A stretch of DNA of 64,000 bases from Nocardia bhagyanarayanae (GTDB lineage Bacteria > Actinomycetota > Actinomycetes > Mycobacteriales > Mycobacteriaceae), in contig NZ_VFPG01000001.1 of the NCBI RefSeq assembly GCF_006716565.1, forward strand, positions 1,488,001-1,552,000, written 5' to 3'. This document shows positions 19,439 through 64,000 of this stretch, in pieces. Every line of letters begins with the position of its first letter. Within the stretch, counting starts at the first letter, position 1. The translations under genes were made by a program, and so were the position numbers. The notes under the pieces were generated by a model. That model saw nothing but the letters and a program-made list of their open reading frames with translations, did no database searches and was not told where the DNA came from.

Positions 19439-19612
19439 ATGTTGGGGGTGCTGAAGGGGTGTGCCTACCGGGGTCTCGGCTCGGTTTGGTTTGGGTGTTG
19501 CGGTGGGTGACGGTTTCCGATGTTGCGGGTGCCCAAGGGGGTGCGCCTACCGGTGTTTTCGCTCAGTGTTGCGGGTGCTCAGAAGGGTTCGCCTACCCAG
19601 GTTTTCCTCGGA
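19439..19612. repeat. Short imperfect repeats after lon
   Basis: Three degenerate copies of a GGTGC-(C/T)NAAGGGG-GTGCCTACC-type unit begin near 19445, 19527 and 19574. The second and third are about 47 nt apart; the first is spaced more widely. Each has GTTG(C/G)GGGTGC at its head and CCTACC in the middle. The stretch is G/T-rich on the forward strand and unlike coding sequence here. It runs into the larger dispersed element at 19585-19876. Confidence 0.55.
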
Positions 19613-19876
19613 GCAGTGCTGGGCGCGTCGTGTGCCGTACCCGGCTTACCTCCCGCAGTCGGTGGGCGTAGGCGCCGGTTCCGGCGTGGTCATCTGGCTG
19701 TGGTTGCGTCTAGGGAGGGCAAGCGAAAGAGCTCTTCGGCCGGTCGAGCTTGGGGAGGGCTGTTGGCCTGTCAAGGGCGCAACCACCATTTGACTACCGT
19801 CGATAGAGAAATGGATTCGACGGTAGTCATATGGCGGCTTTGCAAGATCGAATAGCAACCATTTGACTACCGTCGA
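19585..19876. repeat. Dispersed intergenic element, copy 1
   Basis: This non-coding element recurs at 52549-52815. Its right part has a perfect 13-bp inverted repeat, TGACTACCGTCGA at 19791-19803 and its complement at 19817-19829, around the loop TAGAGAAATGGAT. A third, direct copy of the same 13-mer lies at 19864-19876. Its left part shares segments such as CCGTACCCGGCTTACCTCCC with copy 2. It sits between convergent lon and thioesterase genes, about 30 nt from the thioesterase stop, so it could also work as a terminator. No transposase or terminal target duplication is visible. Confidence 0.75.
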
Positions 19877-19908
19877 TTTTCGGGGCCAACTCGACGAGAA
19901 GCGCCCGA

Positions 19909-25072: not shown

Positions 25073-25195
25073 GATCGCTCCCTCTCGACCCCCGCCATCC
25101 AACTCCTGGCCACCGACACTAGGACCTCAACAAAGGTTGAGGGCAAGTCGATTCCGGGCGGCCGCGGATTCCGCCCCGAGCGAACAAGTGCTCAG

Positions 25196-25236
25196 CCCGC
25201 GCATGGCCGGAGCGGATGCGGAGGTACGCCTAGGCT
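25196..25236 (+). repeat. Short dispersed element, copy A, with leaderless promoter
   Basis: About 35 nt here match the element inserted in the monooxygenase gene at 63840-63900 with three mismatches, and a further copy is at 42766-42803. Shared core: GGCCGGAGCG, then GCGGAGGTACGCCTA. The right end runs into TAGGCT (25231-25236), which sits exactly 6 nt before a GTG start. That is the spacing of a -10 box for a leaderless mRNA. Confidence 0.6.
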
Positions 25237-42734: not shown

Positions 42735-42765
42735 GAGTCCGCCTCGGACAAGTCCGTCGCTGACT

Positions 42766-42803
42766 GAGCGCGGCTGGAGCGAAGGCCGACGTACGCATAG
42801 GCT
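42766..42803 (+). repeat. Short dispersed element, copy B, with leaderless promoter
   Basis: GCGGCTGGAGCGAAGG followed by CCGACGTACGCATAGGCT matches copies at 25196-25236 and 63840-63900 with a few changes. As in copy A, it ends in a TAGGCT (42798-42803) placed exactly 6 nt before a GTG start. Confidence 0.55.
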
Positions 42804-47900: not shown

Positions 47901-50362
47901 GCGAAGTCGACGGCGATGCGCTGCGCGAACATGCCGCGGCGCTTCGCCCGTCGCACGACGGTGTCGATATAGCGCGGCGTCCCCGACACCACCACCGAAC
48001 GAGGTCCGTTCACCGCCGCGATTCCGACCTCGGTCCGCACCGGCGCGACCAGCCGCGCCGTCTCGTCCGGGGTCGCCTCGAGCAACGCCATCGCACCCTG
48101 CCCGTCGAGCGTCGCGAGGGCACGACTGCGCCGCACCGCCACCAGCGCCGCGTCGGGCAGCGTCAACGCGCCGCTCACGGCCGCCGCCGCGATCTCGCCG
48201 AGACTGTGCCCCGCCACCGCGTCGGGTCGAATTCCCCAGGACTCCAACAGCTTCGCCGCCGCGACCTGGTAGGCGAAGATCGCGGGCTGCACCAGATCGG
48301 TGGCGGCTCGCCCGTCCTCGCCGAGACCGAACCCGTAGCGCGGGGTCCAGACCTTCGGCCCACCGTGCGCCACGATCGCTTCCGTGGCCTCGGCGAGGGC
48401 ACGTGCGAACACGGGATAGCGCGCCGCCAGCGCCCGCCCCATCCGCGCATGCTGCCCGCCCTGCCCCGAGAACAGGAACAGCACACCGCCGCGCCGCCGG
48501 ACCGTGCCGGGTCCGGTGATCGCGGGACCGCTCTCGCCGCGCGCCAATGCCCGCAGTCCGGCGACCGCCGTCGCGCGATCGTGCGCGATCACGCTGGCGC
48601 GCGCGTTCTCGGGGAGTAGGCGGGCCGCGGCCGCAGCGAGGGGGCGAAGGGCTGCTGTGGCAGTGGAATGGCCTGTTGTCGTGGCGGTTTCGTATTCGCC
48701 GGTAGTTCGTGCCGTCGGATCGAGACCGGGAATGCGTTCGGACGTAGTGGTTTCCGCGATGGCGGTCGCGGAACTGCGGCACCATCCGCTCGACGACGCT
48801 CGTGCCGTCCGTTCGGTTGCGTCCGCTGTCGCGGCTACCTCGTCAAGTGTTGGTGGGGCAGTCGTGGAGGGCTTGCGATCGAGTACCGGTCGGGTAGGGG
48901 TGAGGGGTTCGCCGTCGAGTGCCGGTCGGGTAGCCGTGGGGGATCCGCTGTCGAGTACCGGTCGGGTAGCCGTGAGGGGTTCGCCGTCGAACACCGGCAA
49001 TTCACCCTCCGAGTCCAACCGCTGCGCCAACGCCAGCGCCTGGATCTGCAAATCGGCAACGTCGCGCCCGGTCACCGGAATCAGCACCGGCGGCTCCTCA
49101 CCCCGCGACGCCGCCGACTCCGGATACCCGCGCAGCACGACGTGCGCGTTGGTCCCGCCGAATCCGAACGAGCTGACTCCGGCCAGCCGCTCCTCCGGCG
49201 CGGCCGTCCAGTCGACCGGCTCCGTCGGCACCCGCAGCCCGCGCTCCGTCAGCTTCAGCAGCGGATTCGGGGCGTCGAAATGGATGGTCGGCGCGATGAC
49301 GCCGCGGTGGATCGAGAGCGCGGTCTTGATCAACCCGGTCACGCCCGCCGCCGCCTCGAGGTGGCCGAGATTGGACTTCACCGACCCGATCCAGGTTTCC
49401 CCGCCCTCGCCGAGCACGGATGCCAACGCGCCGACCTCGACCGCGTCGCCGAGAGCCGTTCCGGTCCCGTGGCATTCGATGTAGCCCGCGCCGCGCGGGT
49501 CGAGACCGGCGCGGGACCACGCGGCGCGCAGGGTCTCTCGCTGGGCGCGTCCGTTCGGCGCGTAGAGGCCGTTCGAGCGGCCGTCGGAACCGACCGCAGC
49601 CCCGAGGATCTCGGCGTACACCCGGTTTCCCTCGCGCCGCGCGTCCGCGGTGCGCTGGAGGACGAGCACGCCGCACCCGTCGCTGCGCGTGTAGCCGTCG
49701 GCCGCGGCGGAGAACGGCTTGCAACGTCCGTCCTCGGCCAGGAATCCACTCTCGGCCAGATAGTCCGAGGTGTGCGGCAGCAGCGTCAGATTCACGCCGC
49801 CGACGATCGCGAAGGGCACGGTCTCGTCCGCGAGCAGCCGCAGGGCGATGTCGACCGCCGCGAGAGAGGACGAGCACGCGCTGTCCACCACCAGGCTCGG
49901 CCCGTGCAGGTCCAGCGCGTAGGACAGCCGGTTGGCGATGATGCTGAGCGCCGATCCCGTCACCGCGTACGGCGCGTCCTGCTCACCGCCGCCGAGCACC
50001 GTGACGCCGTGGTCGTAGCCGCACGCGCCGAACACCACGGCCGCATCGGAACCTCGTGTGCGATAACCGATTCCGGCGTCGTCGAGCGCTTCGACGGAGA
50101 CTTCCAGCGCGACCCGCTGCTGCGGGTCCATCAGCGCCGCCTCGCGCGCGGAGATGGCGAACCAGTCGTTGTCGAACCACTCGATGTCGTCGAGATAGCC
50201 CGCGCGCCTGGTCACCGACCGGCCCGGAGGTGGATCGCCGGTGGCATCGCGCCCGGCCATCAGCAGCCGCCAGAATTCGTCCAGGCCCGCCGCGCCGGGC
50301 ACCCGGCACGCCATGCCGACGATGGCGACCGATGGCTGCGTGGACGGAGTGCGTGCGGTCAT
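44924..50362 (-). CDS. Type I polyketide synthase, one reducing module (KS-AT-DH-KR-ACP)
   Basis: The product has 1812 residues. KS (about 9-425) has Cys163 (DSACSSS), His298 (ECHGTGT) and His334 (NLGHLE). AT (about 628-915) has Ser720 in GHSLGE. DH (about 960-1235) has His990 in HVVRGVPTVP and Asp1137 in LDGCLH. KR (about 1455-1640) has GGLGALG and Tyr1600 (QAAYAAAN). The ACP Ser is 1763 (LGLSSL). No ER, TE or reductase is present, so the product is probably an alpha,beta-unsaturated acyl-ACP released by another enzyme. A 190-residue KS-AT linker is repetitive. It is coupled by ATGA to the ACP gene and GTGA to FAAL. Confidence 0.93.
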   Translation of the reverse strand: MTARTPSTQPSVAIVGMACRVPGAAGLDEFWRLLMAGRDATGDPPPGRSVTRRAGYLDDIEWFDNDWFAISAREAALMDPQQRVALEVSVEALDDAGIGYRTRGSDAAVVFGACGYDHGVTVLGGGEQDAPYAVTGSALSIIANRLSYALDLHGPSLVVDSACSSSLAAVDIALRLLADETVPFAIVGGVNLTLLPHTSDYLAESGFLAEDGRCKPFSAAADGYTRSDGCGVLVLQRTADARREGNRVYAEILGAAVGSDGRSNGLYAPNGRAQRETLRAAWSRAGLDPRGAGYIECHGTGTALGDAVEVGALASVLGEGGETWIGSVKSNLGHLEAAAGVTGLIKTALSIHRGVIAPTIHFDAPNPLLKLTERGLRVPTEPVDWTAAPEERLAGVSSFGFGGTNAHVVLRGYPESAASRGEEPPVLIPVTGRDVADLQIQALALAQRLDSEGELPVFDGEPLTATRPVLDSGSPTATRPALDGEPLTPTRPVLDRKPSTTAPPTLDEVAATADATERTARASSSGWCRSSATAIAETTTSERIPGLDPTARTTGEYETATTTGHSTATAALRPLAAAAARLLPENARASVIAHDRATAVAGLRALARGESGPAITGPGTVRRRGGVLFLFSGQGGQHARMGRALAARYPVFARALAEATEAIVAHGGPKVWTPRYGFGLGEDGRAATDLVQPAIFAYQVAAAKLLESWGIRPDAVAGHSLGEIAAAAVSGALTLPDAALVAVRRSRALATLDGQGAMALLEATPDETARLVAPVRTEVGIAAVNGPRSVVVSGTPRYIDTVVRRAKRRGMFAQRIAVDFAAHSPQVSPVLPEFVGGLGDLAPRTPHTPVYSTTRRGAVLTTAALDRAYWAENASGTVELAAALERAAADGLATVLELAPHPVLAPAAREYPEFRDATYPIADRDDEAGAFLRCLAGLYDEGRALDWSASGPFVVPPPRRRWRRGQFELITRLRNGSTAIPFRTGPLEDHVVRGVPTVPAVHWVRRLLHQAHSAAAGMIADFVVHERADLSVLPDADYRTDDAGVRAQAGAMVLASARPAPGPTPADIVAWMRAVDANRAAQHRMRPLAAASFYDMLRRRGLEYGPRFRPLRAIAAAPGCAIGHFDAAELHSAATLDGCLHLLAAAADALPDGLVPLPIAMDTAWVSTEPGRVVAEAHAVTRARTARGLIGDIVGTDQHGVPVLAFSGVRVRFADAGSMDHGRLDEDFGEEERPVFRVETWQPILETGSASESLGTSPTDAATIYPPTARRTSPSRAPDPRRALVVGESDLAVRLSRALERTLPTERIAREPDAASAVLASVLLARDAAERIALVLVWPEGGEVAAGTTAAGRVLDLLQRAQSDPAIGSLTVLLPRRARHDFTANALAGLTRTLQLESGRPVRLLWSDTDARTLPRLVELITEDTHPAELAVAEGELAMRRFVPAAPDVPPIVIDPDGTYVVTGGLGALGAVAVRWLLDAGARDVVVLTRSPRPVPAVLDGSEDHVVVVGCDVADRSDLANALNDIRECGSTIRGVVHAAGALEDAAFEAVDADQLARMFAPKAGAAADLVALTAADPTDFVLLFSSATGAFGAPGQAAYAAANAAMDAVAAAAGDRRVLSIGWGVWATGLAATAGGAEHLRRAGINALDAERGAAMLAKALRYRGPYLLALDYTPTDDRSPVASRLRELLGEPSAFERSPNSDGVSAATVGGLGYPIRRSDGVAPAEPEPIAAAIRRVLAATLDLPAETIGPTDDFNDLGLSSLLAIEVRRTLEARLRIAISTAELFQHPTIAALGAALADRVAANDSEAS
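48843..48997 (-). repeat. 36-bp tandem repeat in the PKS KS-AT linker
   Basis: Three close copies of a 36-bp unit start at 48879, 48915 and 48951, with a degenerate copy at 48843 and a partial one at 48987. They encode 12-residue units such as DGEPLTATRPVL at about residues 456-507, in the disordered stretch between KS and AT. The frame is preserved because the unit is a multiple of 3. Confidence 0.85.
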
Positions 50363-51832: not shown

Positions 51833-51861
51833 GGCCGCCGCCCGCCGCCTCCCAGTGCGCT

Positions 51862-52425
51862 GAGTTGCAACAGTGTCCGCGTAGGCGTTCGCGCGGAGCC
51901 GGGCTCCGCGGCAGGCGGCGTGGTGTCGTTGCTGGGCAACGGCCCGGCATCGCGCCACGTGATGGGGTGCTGCTTGTCGCGCACGGCTTCGGATTACGTT
52001 GAGTGACACTGTTGCCGGCGTAGGCGTTTGCGCGGAGCCGGTCCACGCGGCAGGCGGCGTGGTGCCGGTTGCTGGGCAGCGGCCTGGCATCGCGCCACGC
52101 CCCGGGGTTCGCTTGTCGCGCACGGCTTCGGATTACGTTGAGTGACACTGTTGCCGGCGTAGGCGTTCGAGCGCGCCGTGATCCGCGTGGCGTCCGCGGC
52201 CTGGCGCCGCGTGCTGGGCAACGGCCTGGCGTCCCGCGACGCGCCTGCGGCGTCATCTGCCGCGCAGGGCTTCTGCCGCACTGAGCGGCACGGCTGTTCG
52301 GCCAAGACGCCCAAGCAGAGCCGCGGTCCGCGCGGCAGGCGGCGTGGTGCCGGTTGCTGGGCAGCGGCCTGGCATCGCGCCACGCCCCGGGGTCCGCTTG
52401 CCGCGCACGGCGTTCGAGTCACGCT
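51862..52425. repeat. Four tandem copies of a unit of about 140 bp
   Basis: Units start at 51862, 52001, 52140 and 52283, with lengths 139, 139, 143 and about 143. Copies 1, 2 and 4 are close, sharing GGCAGGCGGCGTGGTG, GGCATCGCGCCACG and CGCGCACGGC; copy 3 has diverged in its middle. The unit length is not a multiple of 3 and both strands contain stops, so it is not a protein repeat. Longer than CRISPR repeats and without unique spacers. It may be a VNTR/MIRU-like element. Confidence 0.8.
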
Positions 52426-52548: not shown

Positions 52549-52815
52549 GGTTCGGCCTACCCAGGTTTGCCTCTGAGCGGTGCTGGGCGCGTTGGGTGCC
52601 GTACCCGGCTTACCTCCCGCAGTTGTCGAGCGCGGGTTCGGGTTCCGGCGTGGTCGACCGGCTGTGGTTGCGTTTCCGGGTGGTCGTGTGAGGTGTTCTG
52701 TTGCGTCTGTCTAGGGGGCTTCCACCATTTGACTACCGTCGATAGAGAAATGGATTCGACGGTAGTCATATGGCTGCTTTTCGATCTTGATACGCAACCA
52801 TTCGACTACCGTCGA
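52549..52815. repeat. Dispersed intergenic element, copy 2
   Basis: This is the second copy of the element at 19585-19876. It has the same 13-bp inverted repeat (52730-52742 with 52756-52768) and the identical loop TAGAGAAATGGAT. A third 13-mer at 52803-52815 differs by one base. CTGGGCGCG, CCGTACCCGGCTTACCTCCC and GGTTCCGGCGTGGTC are shared, while other parts have drifted. It again lies between convergent genes, ending 12 nt before the reverse-strand stop. Confidence 0.75.
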
Positions 52816-52827
52816 ATTCGCCCGTCC

Positions 52828-61903: not shown

Positions 61904-62491
61904 GTGGCTCGTGATCTTCGCATCTGCTTCGTCGGTGACTCGTTCGTCGCCGGTGTCGGCGATCCCCGCTGCCTCGGTTGGGTCGGCCGTCTCGGCCCCG
62001 CGGCCATGCCGTTCACCGGATACAACCTCGGCGTGCGGCGCGAGACCTCGGCGGACATCGTCGCGCGCTGGCAGGCCGAGTGCACGCCGCGGCTGCCCGA
62101 GGGAACCGACGCCAGGGTGGTCTTCTCGTTCGGCGTGAACGACACCGTGCTCGAAAACGGCTCGCCGCGAGTGGATCCCGGTGAATCGGTAGCCAACCTG
62201 ACCAACGTGCTGGCGGTCGCCGCCGAGCGCGGTTGGCAGACAATGGTTGTCGCGCCGCCGCCCGTCGACGACGACGCCCACAACGTCAGGATCGCCCATC
62301 TCGACGAGCGTTTCGCCGAGATCTGCGCCGGGGCCGGAACGCCGTACGCCCGCGTGCACCACGAACTGCGCGCGAACGAGGTGTGGATGCGGGAGGTGCG
62401 CGAAGGCGACGGCGCGCACCCGGGCGCGGCCGGTTACGACGCGATCGCGGCGCTGATCATGCCGGTCTGGCTGGAGTGGTTGTCCCGCTGA
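61904..62491 (+). CDS. SGNH/GDSL hydrolase
   Basis: The product is 195 residues. Catalytic Ser13 is in FVGDSFVAG, the Gly/Asn oxyanion blocks are in YNLGVRRET and FGVND, and Asp169-x2-His172 is in DGAHPGAAG. No signal peptide is present, so it acts in the cytosol, probably as an esterase or deacylase. The GTG at 61904 has a GGGAGGATC ribosome site; a TTG 3 nt before it is an alternative. It diverges from the 2OG oxygenase across about 100 bp, and its 3' end overlaps the convergent monooxygenase gene by 35 nt. Confidence 0.85.
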   Translation: MARDLRICFVGDSFVAGVGDPRCLGWVGRLGPAAMPFTGYNLGVRRETSADIVARWQAECTPRLPEGTDARVVFSFGVNDTVLENGSPRVDPGESVANLTNVLAVAAERGWQTMVVAPPPVDDDAHNVRIAHLDERFAEICAGAGTPYARVHHELRANEVWMREVREGDGAHPGAAGYDAIAALIMPVWLEWLSR

Positions 62492-64000
62492 GCGTTTCGG
62501 AGCTCAGTTGCCGATAGTCGTAGTCGTCCAACGGGAAACGGCGATTTCCGCGCCGGGCCTCGAAGAATCCGGACGGGCGCACATAGGTCGTGTCGCCGCG
62601 CGAGTTTCGGTAGTAGGTCGGCACGTGTCCGTTGAGTTCGGCCAGGTAGTACCGCAGCGCGGCGCCCTTGCGATGGATGTCGCGGTGGTAGGCGTCGTGC
62701 CGGGCGCGCTTCACCTCCACCGCGGTCGCCGCGCGCCGCTTGGCCTCGGTGATCGCGCGGACGGCGTGGTCTGCGGTCATCTCGACGAAGGCGTGCCAGC
62801 CGCTTCCGGTCCACGAGTAGGGCCCGACGAGGGTCCAGCGATTGGGCAGACCCGGCACCGAAACGCTTTGGTAGGCCTGTAATCCGCGCTCGGACCAGAA
62901 GACGCCCAGATCGAACCCGTCACGTCCGACGATGGTCCCCGGTCGGTAGGTCTCCGGATCGGAGAAGACCTCGTAGCCGGTGGCCAGCACGATCGCGTCG
63001 AACTCGCGCAGCGCGCCGTCGCGAGTTCGGATGCCCGCCTCCGTGATTCGCTCGATCCCGTCGGTCACCAGCTCGACGTTCTCCCGGTTGAACGCGAGGG
63101 GGTAGCCCGTCGACATGGTGGGCCGCTTGGCGATCGGTCCGTAGTTCGGTGTCAACCGGCGCGCGGTATCCCGGTCGCGGACAACCAGATTCAAATACCG
63201 CCGATAGGCTGCGACGGCCGCGCCGTCCAGTGCGCGCATGGCGGGCTTGGCCAGCCAGAGTGGAGCCGACGTGCCGGTGCGCAGCACGGCGTCGATCGCG
63301 ACGAGCGCCGCGCCGTGTCCCGCGGCCACCACACCCGGTACCGCCGCGATCGCGCGCATGGCAGCGGGCACCGGGAAATCCGGCTTCGGGACACACCACA
63401 CCGGCGTGCGCTGGAAGACCGCGAGCGCGCCGACCTCCGGCGCGATGGACGGCACGATCTGCACCGAACTCGCGCCGGTGCCGATCACCGCCACCCGCTT
63501 GCCGCGCAGGTCGTAGTCGTGATCCCAGTCCGAAGGACGCAGGATCTTGCCGCGGAACGACCGCACGCCGGGTATGCCTGGATCGTCCTTCGGCCGCACG
63601 AACGCGCCGACCGCGCTGATCAAGAATCTGGCCGTTCGGACTCCGCCGTCCGCGAGGTGAAGCCGCCACAGGTGCGCCTCGTCGTCCCATTCCTCGCATT
63701 CGACGGTGTTGCCGAACCGGATGTGCGGGTACAGCCCGAAGCGGCGCGCCACCTCGACGTGATACCGCTTCACCTCCGCGCCGCGCGGAAACAGCCTGGA
63801 CCACTCCGGATTTCGCGCGAACGAATACTGGTAGGCGTACCTCCGCCTTCGCTCCGGCCGTGCGCGGTCTGTGGGCGGACTACGTCCGGCTGCGCCCATT
63901 GGCGTAGCACGGGATGTCCACGCCGAGGCCGGGGTAGTGGTTCTCGTGCCAGCTGCCGCCCACCTCGCCGGCACGCTCGAGTACGACGAAATCGTCGATG
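62457..64000 (-). pseudogene. Flavin-containing (Baeyer-Villiger type) monooxygenase, interrupted, 5' end beyond window
   Basis: Two frames encode one protein. From 64000 to about 63907, reverse frame reads DDFVVLERAGEVGGSW and then HENHYPGLGVDIPCYA; the downstream frame resumes at YQYSFARNPEWSRLF and continues through VIGTGASSVQIVPSI to 62457. Between them 67 extra nt (one GGCGTA copy plus 63840-63900) shift the frame and add a TAG at 63882-63880. Removing the 67 nt restores CYAYQYSF exactly. The second NADPH-binding motif and FMO/BVMO features are intact, so inactivation appears recent. A sequencing artefact is possible but unlikely because the insert matches repeats elsewhere. Confidence 0.85.
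63834..63906 (-). mobile_element. Short dispersed element, copy C, inserted in a coding sequence
   Basis: A 61-nt insert (63840-63900) lies between direct repeats GGCGTA at 63834-63839 and 63901-63906, which could be a 6-bp target duplication. Read on the reverse strand, it ends with about 35 nt that match copy A (25196-25236) with three mismatches and copy B with a few more. It contains small inverted repeats (GGACTACGTCC; TCCGCC/GGGCGGA). It is too short to code for anything and would need an outside transposase. Confidence 0.7.

What the first reader, a model, noticed from the sequence alone, without database searches (positions are those of the whole stretch)
63834..63906. A 67-nt insertion breaks a flavin monooxygenase gene and looks like a tiny mobile element
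Deleting the 67 nt restores a perfect family motif (CYAYQYSF), and the insert is flanked by GGCGTA direct repeats. Its sequence recurs at two other places in the window, so it is a repeat family and not random noise. Elements this small that insert with a short duplication and still share sequence with promoter regions are unusual. A far less likely alternative is that the ribosome bypasses the segment.
Basis: partly seen in the sequence, partly recalled or inferred. Interest (0 to 1): 0.75.

Follow-up and report, generated by a model that had tools for sequence, protein, structure and literature searches.

The report
Small jumping repeat breaks Nocardia gene
A tiny repeated DNA element found at over a hundred places in this Nocardia genome has inserted into an oxygenase gene and broken it; the nearest relative still has the uninterrupted gene, and the enzyme that moves the element was not found.

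Summary
A 67-nt insert (63834-63900) splits a flavin monooxygenase gene. The sister species Nocardia amikacinitolerans has an empty site, as have all 12 homologous loci aligned (of 41 found).

The insert belongs to a repeat family with units of about 68 nt: 150 scored matches at 116 places in the host, 113 in the sister, and close copies in 44 of 118 Nocardia genomes. Of 200 genomes drawn from the order, matches came only from this genus.

The left GGCGTA is the element's conserved end; the right one is host sequence that matches it. Seven filled/empty pairs suggest insertion at TA|GGC-like targets, sometimes TAG stop codons or TAGGCT promoter-like boxes. A short duplication is not excluded.

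It works like a REP repeat (TAGG head, two predicted hairpins, extragenic). However, no Y1/RAYT transposase was detected in the host or in 20 of 23 repeat-rich Nocardia genomes, so GTAG-REP membership fails and the mobiliser is unknown. Ribosomal bypassing is unlikely.

The parts
63834..63900 (+). The 67-nt insert, in the register that assumes no duplication (GGCGTACC...GCGCCCATT). The exact ends are ambiguous by up to 6 nt because GGCGTA occurs on both sides.
   Evidence: Gap of exactly 67 nt in the sister; family match 63831-63900
63834..63839 (+). Left GGCGTA: conserved left end of the element, also matched by the target
   Evidence: Family consensus TAGGCGTACC; sequence
63901..63906 (+). 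Right GGCGTA: host sequence, present in the empty site of the sister
   Evidence: Alignment with L031
63835..63865 (+). Predicted hairpin 1 of the element
   Evidence: RNAalifold on 30 copies; conserved but only one-sided changes in 124 copies
63874..63890 (+). Predicted hairpin 2 of the element
   Evidence: two-sided changes at 4 of its 6 pairs in 124 copies
62457..63833 (-). Downstream part of the flavin monooxygenase gene, out of frame with its N-terminal part
   Evidence: PF00743; sister reading frame
63901..64000 (-). Part of the N-terminal section of the same gene; the gene starts about 110 nt beyond the window
   Evidence: L001
63880..63882 (-). TAG inside the insert that ends the N-terminal frame after 76 codons
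63897..63899 (-). ATG supplied by the insert, in frame with the downstream part (480-aa frame); use as a start is not shown
25191..25232 (-). Second copy of the family in the window (truncated), abutting TAGGCT and a GTG
   Evidence: 39.2 bits, E 2.8e-11; sequence
42745..42799 (-). Third, diverged copy in the window, abutting TAGGCT
   Evidence: 21.5 bits, E 9.4e-6; sequence

Best explanation
The insert is a copy of a small, non-autonomous, REP-like mobile repeat of the genus Nocardia, gained after the split from N. amikacinitolerans. Shown: units of about 68 nt in high copy number, mostly between genes, often with TAGGC at the left end, head-to-tail arrays, and a precise 67-nt difference from the empty site. 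Supported but resting on few sites: a preference for TA|GGC-like targets, with the left junction keeping target letters and the right junction carrying the element's own end. Inferred (about 35% likely): the unit GGCGTACC...CCNAYTA moves as a circle or single strand whose junction NAYTA|GGC joins a matching target, as in HUH/Y1 'peel and paste', with the enzyme supplied in trans and unidentified. Because the junction recreates the target, renewed insertion (or slippage) would give the tandem arrays. In the window the target was a TAGGC inside a gene, and the insertion split that gene.
For: Empty site in the sister and in 12 of 12 aligned loci; family of 150 scored matches at 116 places and 113 matches in the sister; head pattern 90 times against 0 for the reversed pattern. 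Seven filled/empty pairs that I judged clean, three with TAGGC and one with TGGGC in the empty site (rough chance of TAGGC at 3 of 7 about 3e-7). At L100 and L143 the right junction has TA where the empty site has CA and TG. 81 of 88 rows lie between called genes. In 12 of 62 clusters the left triplet is an in-frame stop of a long frame. Hairpin 2 shows two-sided changes.
Against: No mobiliser was found: PF01797 absent from the host and from 20 of 23 repeat-rich genomes, PF02371 absent from the host. Only the window site is polarised by outgroups; at the other six pairs a precise loss in the other species is not excluded. L143 fits an 8-nt duplication about as well; L025 and L160 lack a TAGGC target. 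A left/right correlation over 32 single copies is weakly positive. The window copy alone folds only slightly better than shuffles (z -1.6, 13 of 200 at least as good), and slid controls match the structure on one covariation measure.
Confidence: 0.75

Rival explanations
1. It is a GTAG-type REP moved by a RAYT (Y1) transposase that has since been lost, or was supplied from outside (plasmid, phage).
For: TAGG head, hairpins, extragenic placement and stop-codon overlap resemble GTAG REPs (passages of PMC2817692 and PMC3733652). Five repeat-bearing Nocardia genomes do hold a PF01797 match: G003 and G014, G070, G048 and G105.
Against: Absent from the host and from 20 of 23 repeat-rich genomes. Ten Y1 loci have no confident copy beside them; one holds a partial 16.8-bit match (L329), whereas RAYT genes are described as always flanked by two REPs (PMC2817692 abstract). 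The unit is about 68 nt rather than 20-40, and the base before TAG is not fixed as G.
Confidence: 0.15
2. It is a MITE of a DDE-type insertion sequence that makes a short target duplication.
For: L143 fits an 8-nt duplication with one mismatch on each side; L023 has GCCTAGGC on both sides; the left/right correlation is weakly positive.
Against: At L100 and L143 the two sides differ at the key dinucleotide; L025 shows no duplication. Strong terminal inverted repeats are not evident in the consensus. No longer parent element was found: six of seven head matches outside the scored list were read and are truncated, degenerate or unrelated. Most DDE transposase families were not searched.
Confidence: 0.15
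3. The ribosome bypasses the segment between the two TACGCC copies and the gene still works.
For: The segment lies between matched TACGCC words; the rest of the gene is conserved against the sister (54 synonymous nucleotide changes, 18 codons with an amino-acid change over 459 codons).
Against: The insert is one of many copies, nearly all between genes, so no special signal is needed; conservation is also expected if the break is recent. Not tested by protein data.
Confidence: 0.02
4. Assembly error.
For: Repeats can mislead assembly, and no reads are available here.
Against: A 67-nt repeat is shorter than a usual read; no other host copy listed is identical (nearest 96%); the junctions fall exactly at a target-like site.
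Confidence: 0.03

Closest known systems
GTAG-tagged REPs and their RAYT (IS200/IS605-related) transposases (PMC2817692, PMC3733652; passages seen)
   Same: Short dispersed repeats in high copy, mostly extragenic; TAGG head (several listed REPs begin GTAGG); hairpin; TAG end can serve as stop codon; head-to-tail and grouped copies; no obvious large target duplication
   Different: Unit of about 68 nt with two predicted hairpins instead of 20-40 nt; head is NTAGGC with no fixed G; no RAYT in the host or beside the repeat; found in an actinobacterial genus, while the passages seen of the 2013 survey name no Actinobacteria (0 occurrences of the word in its main text)
CGTC-tagged REPs (PMC3733652)
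   Same: REP-like repeats said in that abstract to lack a dedicated transposase
   Different: Different tag and sequence; no filled/empty insertion comparison was seen in the passages read
IS200/IS605 elements (HUH Y1 transposition)
   Same: Subterminal hairpins, no clear inverted repeats, left flank supplied by the target, right motif supplied by the element (the last two recalled for IS200/IS605)
   Different: No Y1 gene found in the host; no cleavage shown
Mycobacterial MIRUs (recalled, no call)
   Same: Tiny dispersed repeats in an actinobacterium, found at gene borders and in tandem
   Different: Sequence relation not tested here

Membership tests
GTAG REP / RAYT system | High copy number of short dispersed repeats | tested here: met
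   150 scored matches at 116 places in the host; tail weak, E up to 0.07
GTAG REP / RAYT system | Extragenic placement | tested here: met
   81 of 88 rows between called genes, 6 at a gene edge, 1 unclassified (rough gene caller)
GTAG REP / RAYT system | GTAG head at one end | tested here: inconclusive
   TAGGC is the commonest left 5-mer (32 copies), but the base before TAG varies
GTAG REP / RAYT system | Palindromic body of 20-40 nt | tested here: not met
   Commonest spacing 68 nt (14 of 34); two predicted hairpins. Units of about 36 nt with the first hairpin only occur in G015
GTAG REP / RAYT system | RAYT (Y1, PF01797) gene flanked by the repeat | tested here: not met
   Absent from the host (control rang in 5 of 14) and from 20 of 23 repeat-rich genomes; no confident copy beside ten Y1 loci, one partial 16.8-bit match
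IS110-family element | IS110 transposase (PF02371) in the genome | tested here: not met
   No match at E <= 0.001 in the host; control rang in 4 of 14
IS91/ISCR (Y2) | Y2 transposase (PF04986) in the genome | tested here: inconclusive
   No match, but no control genome rang either
DDE-type MITE | Target duplication of constant length | tested here: inconclusive
   L143 and L023 fit one, L100 and L025 do not; weak correlation over 32 copies
DDE-type MITE | Parent insertion sequence with the same ends | not tested
   Only head matches were followed up; DDE transposase families were not searched
Programmed ribosomal bypassing | One protein product made across the gap | not testable with these tools
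   Needs proteomics or ribosome profiling

The most novel reading that the evidence does not exclude
A Nocardia-specific, REP-like repeat family is still spreading by insertion at TA|GGC-like sites without target duplication, through an enzyme that is neither a Y1/RAYT nor an IS110 transposase. Its target preference steers it to TAG stop codons and TAGGCT promoter-like boxes, so that it reshapes gene borders.
Probability: 0.3. Interest if true: 0.65.

Novelty: new variant of a known kind. Interest (0 to 1): 0.42.

Why it matters
[quoted passage not shown] Here are filled/empty pairs between sister species, one of them an interrupted gene polarised by outgroups, in a lineage where the usual enzyme was not detected. 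The question becomes testable by strain comparison. It is also a warning to annotators: a tiny repeat can split a gene and supply false starts and stops.

Tried and rejected
Mobiliser: a RAYT in the host (none) or beside the repeat elsewhere; IS110 (none in the host); IS91-type Y2 (cannot be judged because no control rang). A longer parent: of seven head matches lying outside the scored list I read six, which are truncated, degenerate or unrelated. Rfam at E up to 1 on the 3-kb locus L001: nothing. Strand bias: on C1 45 of 94 places on +; on C2 17 of 22, p 0.017 uncorrected. Duplication test over 32 single copies: weak signal on one diagonal.

Rows dropped: the rule called 8 host sites empty; I dropped L013 (left flank differs) and L147 (the sister seems to hold a degenerate copy). 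L023 fell under 'other'. Of 2 sister-only sites I dropped C19:124053. I kept L280 although its copy is partial and its right junction is unclear. The in-frame stop count has no working control. My note gives 12 of 23 other same-genus genomes; the right count is 11 of 23.

Papers: seven searches listed nothing that I could recognise as this repeat; the library holds open-licence PMC papers only. PMC3733652 and PMC2817692 were seen as abstract text and found passages, not read whole; other papers as listings only.

Full report
1. The observation. The DNA at 63830-63910 reads as described. The interrupted gene is an FMO-like flavin monooxygenase on the - strand (PF00743) that starts about 110 nt beyond the window. 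A scan of named genomes gave 41 homologous loci; the nearest is N. amikacinitolerans NBRC 108937 (L031, 96% protein identity), so the host is taken to be a Nocardia. Of the 41 loci, 12 were aligned with the window and all 12 lack the 67 nt. A family model run over all 41 found one confident match, in L031, upstream of the gene, and one weak 8.5-bit match in L070. As it stands, the N-terminal frame stops after 76 codons inside the insert; the downstream part is open for 480 aa from an ATG that the insert supplies, without the N-terminal dinucleotide-binding motif (motif recalled); the sister reads 528 aa. Against the sister, 459 downstream codons show 54 synonymous nucleotide changes and 18 codons with an amino-acid change, and the 68 N-terminal codons 9 and 3. 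The break therefore looks recent.

2. A repeat family. A DNA search gave 63 matches in the host (40 of 157 candidates scored). They form 116 places, 90 single and 26 with two to five units; the commonest spacing is 68 nt (14 of 34, and 25 of 34 lie within 66-70). The head pattern with one mismatch allowed occurs 90 times against 0 for the reversed pattern. The window holds three supported copies. The sister has 113 matches at E <= 1e-3 (150 of 17,179 candidates scored).

3. Spread. With the 81-base query, 11 of 23 other same-genus genomes match at E <= 1e-3; of 16 genomes from other genera one has a weak 28-nt match. With a stricter query, 44 of 118 Nocardia genomes including the host match at E <= 1e-12 (7 candidates scored per genome, so a lower bound). 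Of 200 genomes drawn from the order (60 genera), 3 match at E <= 1e-8, all in this genus (4 candidates scored per genome).

4. Filled and empty sites. About 2.4 Mb of the sister and 30 sister loci were compared with 87 host clusters of at least 30 bits. 31 could be located: 22 shared, 8 empty and 1 other by rule. In reverse, 33 of 57 sister clusters were located: 31 shared, 2 empty. On inspection I accept seven: L001 (the window), L004, L025, L143, L160, L280 (partial copy, right junction unclear) and sister-only L100. Only the window site is polarised by further species; at the other six a precise loss in the other genome is possible. The empty sites show TAGGC at three (window, L004, L280), TGGGC at L143, and other AG-containing letters at L025, L160 and L100. 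A rough chance for TAGGC at 3 of 7 is about 3e-7. At L100 (empty site CA) and L143 (TG) the left junction keeps those letters while the right shows TA, so the right motif seems to come from the element. GGCGTACC is the family's left end, so the window's GGCGTA pair is a match of target and element end and not a proven duplication. Against this, L143 also fits an 8-nt duplication with one mismatch on either side, L023 has GCCTAGGC on both sides, and a left/right correlation over 32 single copies is weakly positive over five positions.

5. Where copies sit. A rough codon-usage gene caller put 81 of 88 rows between genes (38 tandem, 22 divergent, 21 convergent), 6 at a gene edge, 1 unclassified, and none wholly inside a called gene. 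The window copy appears twice in those rows, as an edge (L001, because its gene is broken) and as the unclassified row. In 12 of 62 clusters with a readable left end the first triplet is an in-frame stop of a long frame, ten of them TAG; this count has no working control. TAGGCT stands at 5 of 28 right and 2 of 62 left junctions, against 0.0002-0.0003 expected per junction. That TAGGCT can be an actinobacterial -10 box is recalled.

6. Structure. Two hairpins are predicted. In 124 copies (an alignment fitted to the model, so it leans towards the structure) 97.0% of cells pair, against 2.8-59.2% in slid versions. There are 16 cells with two-sided changes, against 2.1 in shuffles and 6-11 in slid versions. 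The number of pairs with a two-sided change is 4, against 4-9 in slid versions, so that measure shows no excess. The two-sided changes lie in hairpin 2, at 4 of its 6 pairs; hairpin 1 has only one-sided changes. Folded alone as DNA, the window copy is little better than shuffles (z -1.6).

7. Mechanism and mobiliser. The junctions resemble HUH/Y1 single-strand transposition and the anatomy resembles GTAG REPs, for which the passages seen in PMC2817692 and PMC3733652 describe a GTAG head, stop-codon overlap and RAYT genes flanked by REPs. But PF01797 was not detected in the host, in the sister, or in 20 of 23 repeat-rich genomes that I picked (two of the 23, G040 and G101, look like the same species). 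It is present in G003 and G014, which carry the repeat, and in G070, G048 and G105. Ten Y1 loci show no confident copy beside them, only one partial 16.8-bit match. PF02371 was not detected in the host; PF04986 could not be judged; DDE families were not searched. The enzyme remains unknown.

8. Verdict. This is a real and, by outgroups, recent insertion of a Nocardia REP-like repeat. What is new, as far as the papers searched show, is the family, its host genus, its two-hairpin unit of about 68 nt and its apparent independence of a RAYT. Membership in the GTAG REP/RAYT system fails on unit size and on the transposase. The claim that it works like a REP stands as a likeness, with the peel-and-paste step inferred.

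Noticed in passing
L001:1806-1870 (64135-64199 in window coordinates, beyond the window's end): A second, older copy of the same family lies just upstream of the broken monooxygenase gene, in the opposite orientation to the insert; the sister has a copy at the matching place.
   Followed up: partly
window 48841-48984: Tandem repeat with a step of 36 nt (D2).
   Followed up: no
window 51833-52411: Tandem blocks with steps of about 139-143 nt (D1, D4 and D6).
   Followed up: no
window 19591-19879 and 52555-52818: Two places share stretches of 112-119 nt at 86-87% identity, and a 62-nt stretch is listed as inverted between them (D3, D5 and I1): another dispersed repeat or shared gene segment.
   Followed up: no
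L098 around 1501-1640 (genome G015): Half-length units of about 36 nt holding only the first hairpin stand in tandem in another Nocardia genome, which suggests that the element is built of two modules.
   Followed up: partly
G000 contig C2: 17 of 22 repeat places on C2 are on the + strand (p 0.017, uncorrected), while C1 is balanced with 45 of 94.
   Followed up: no
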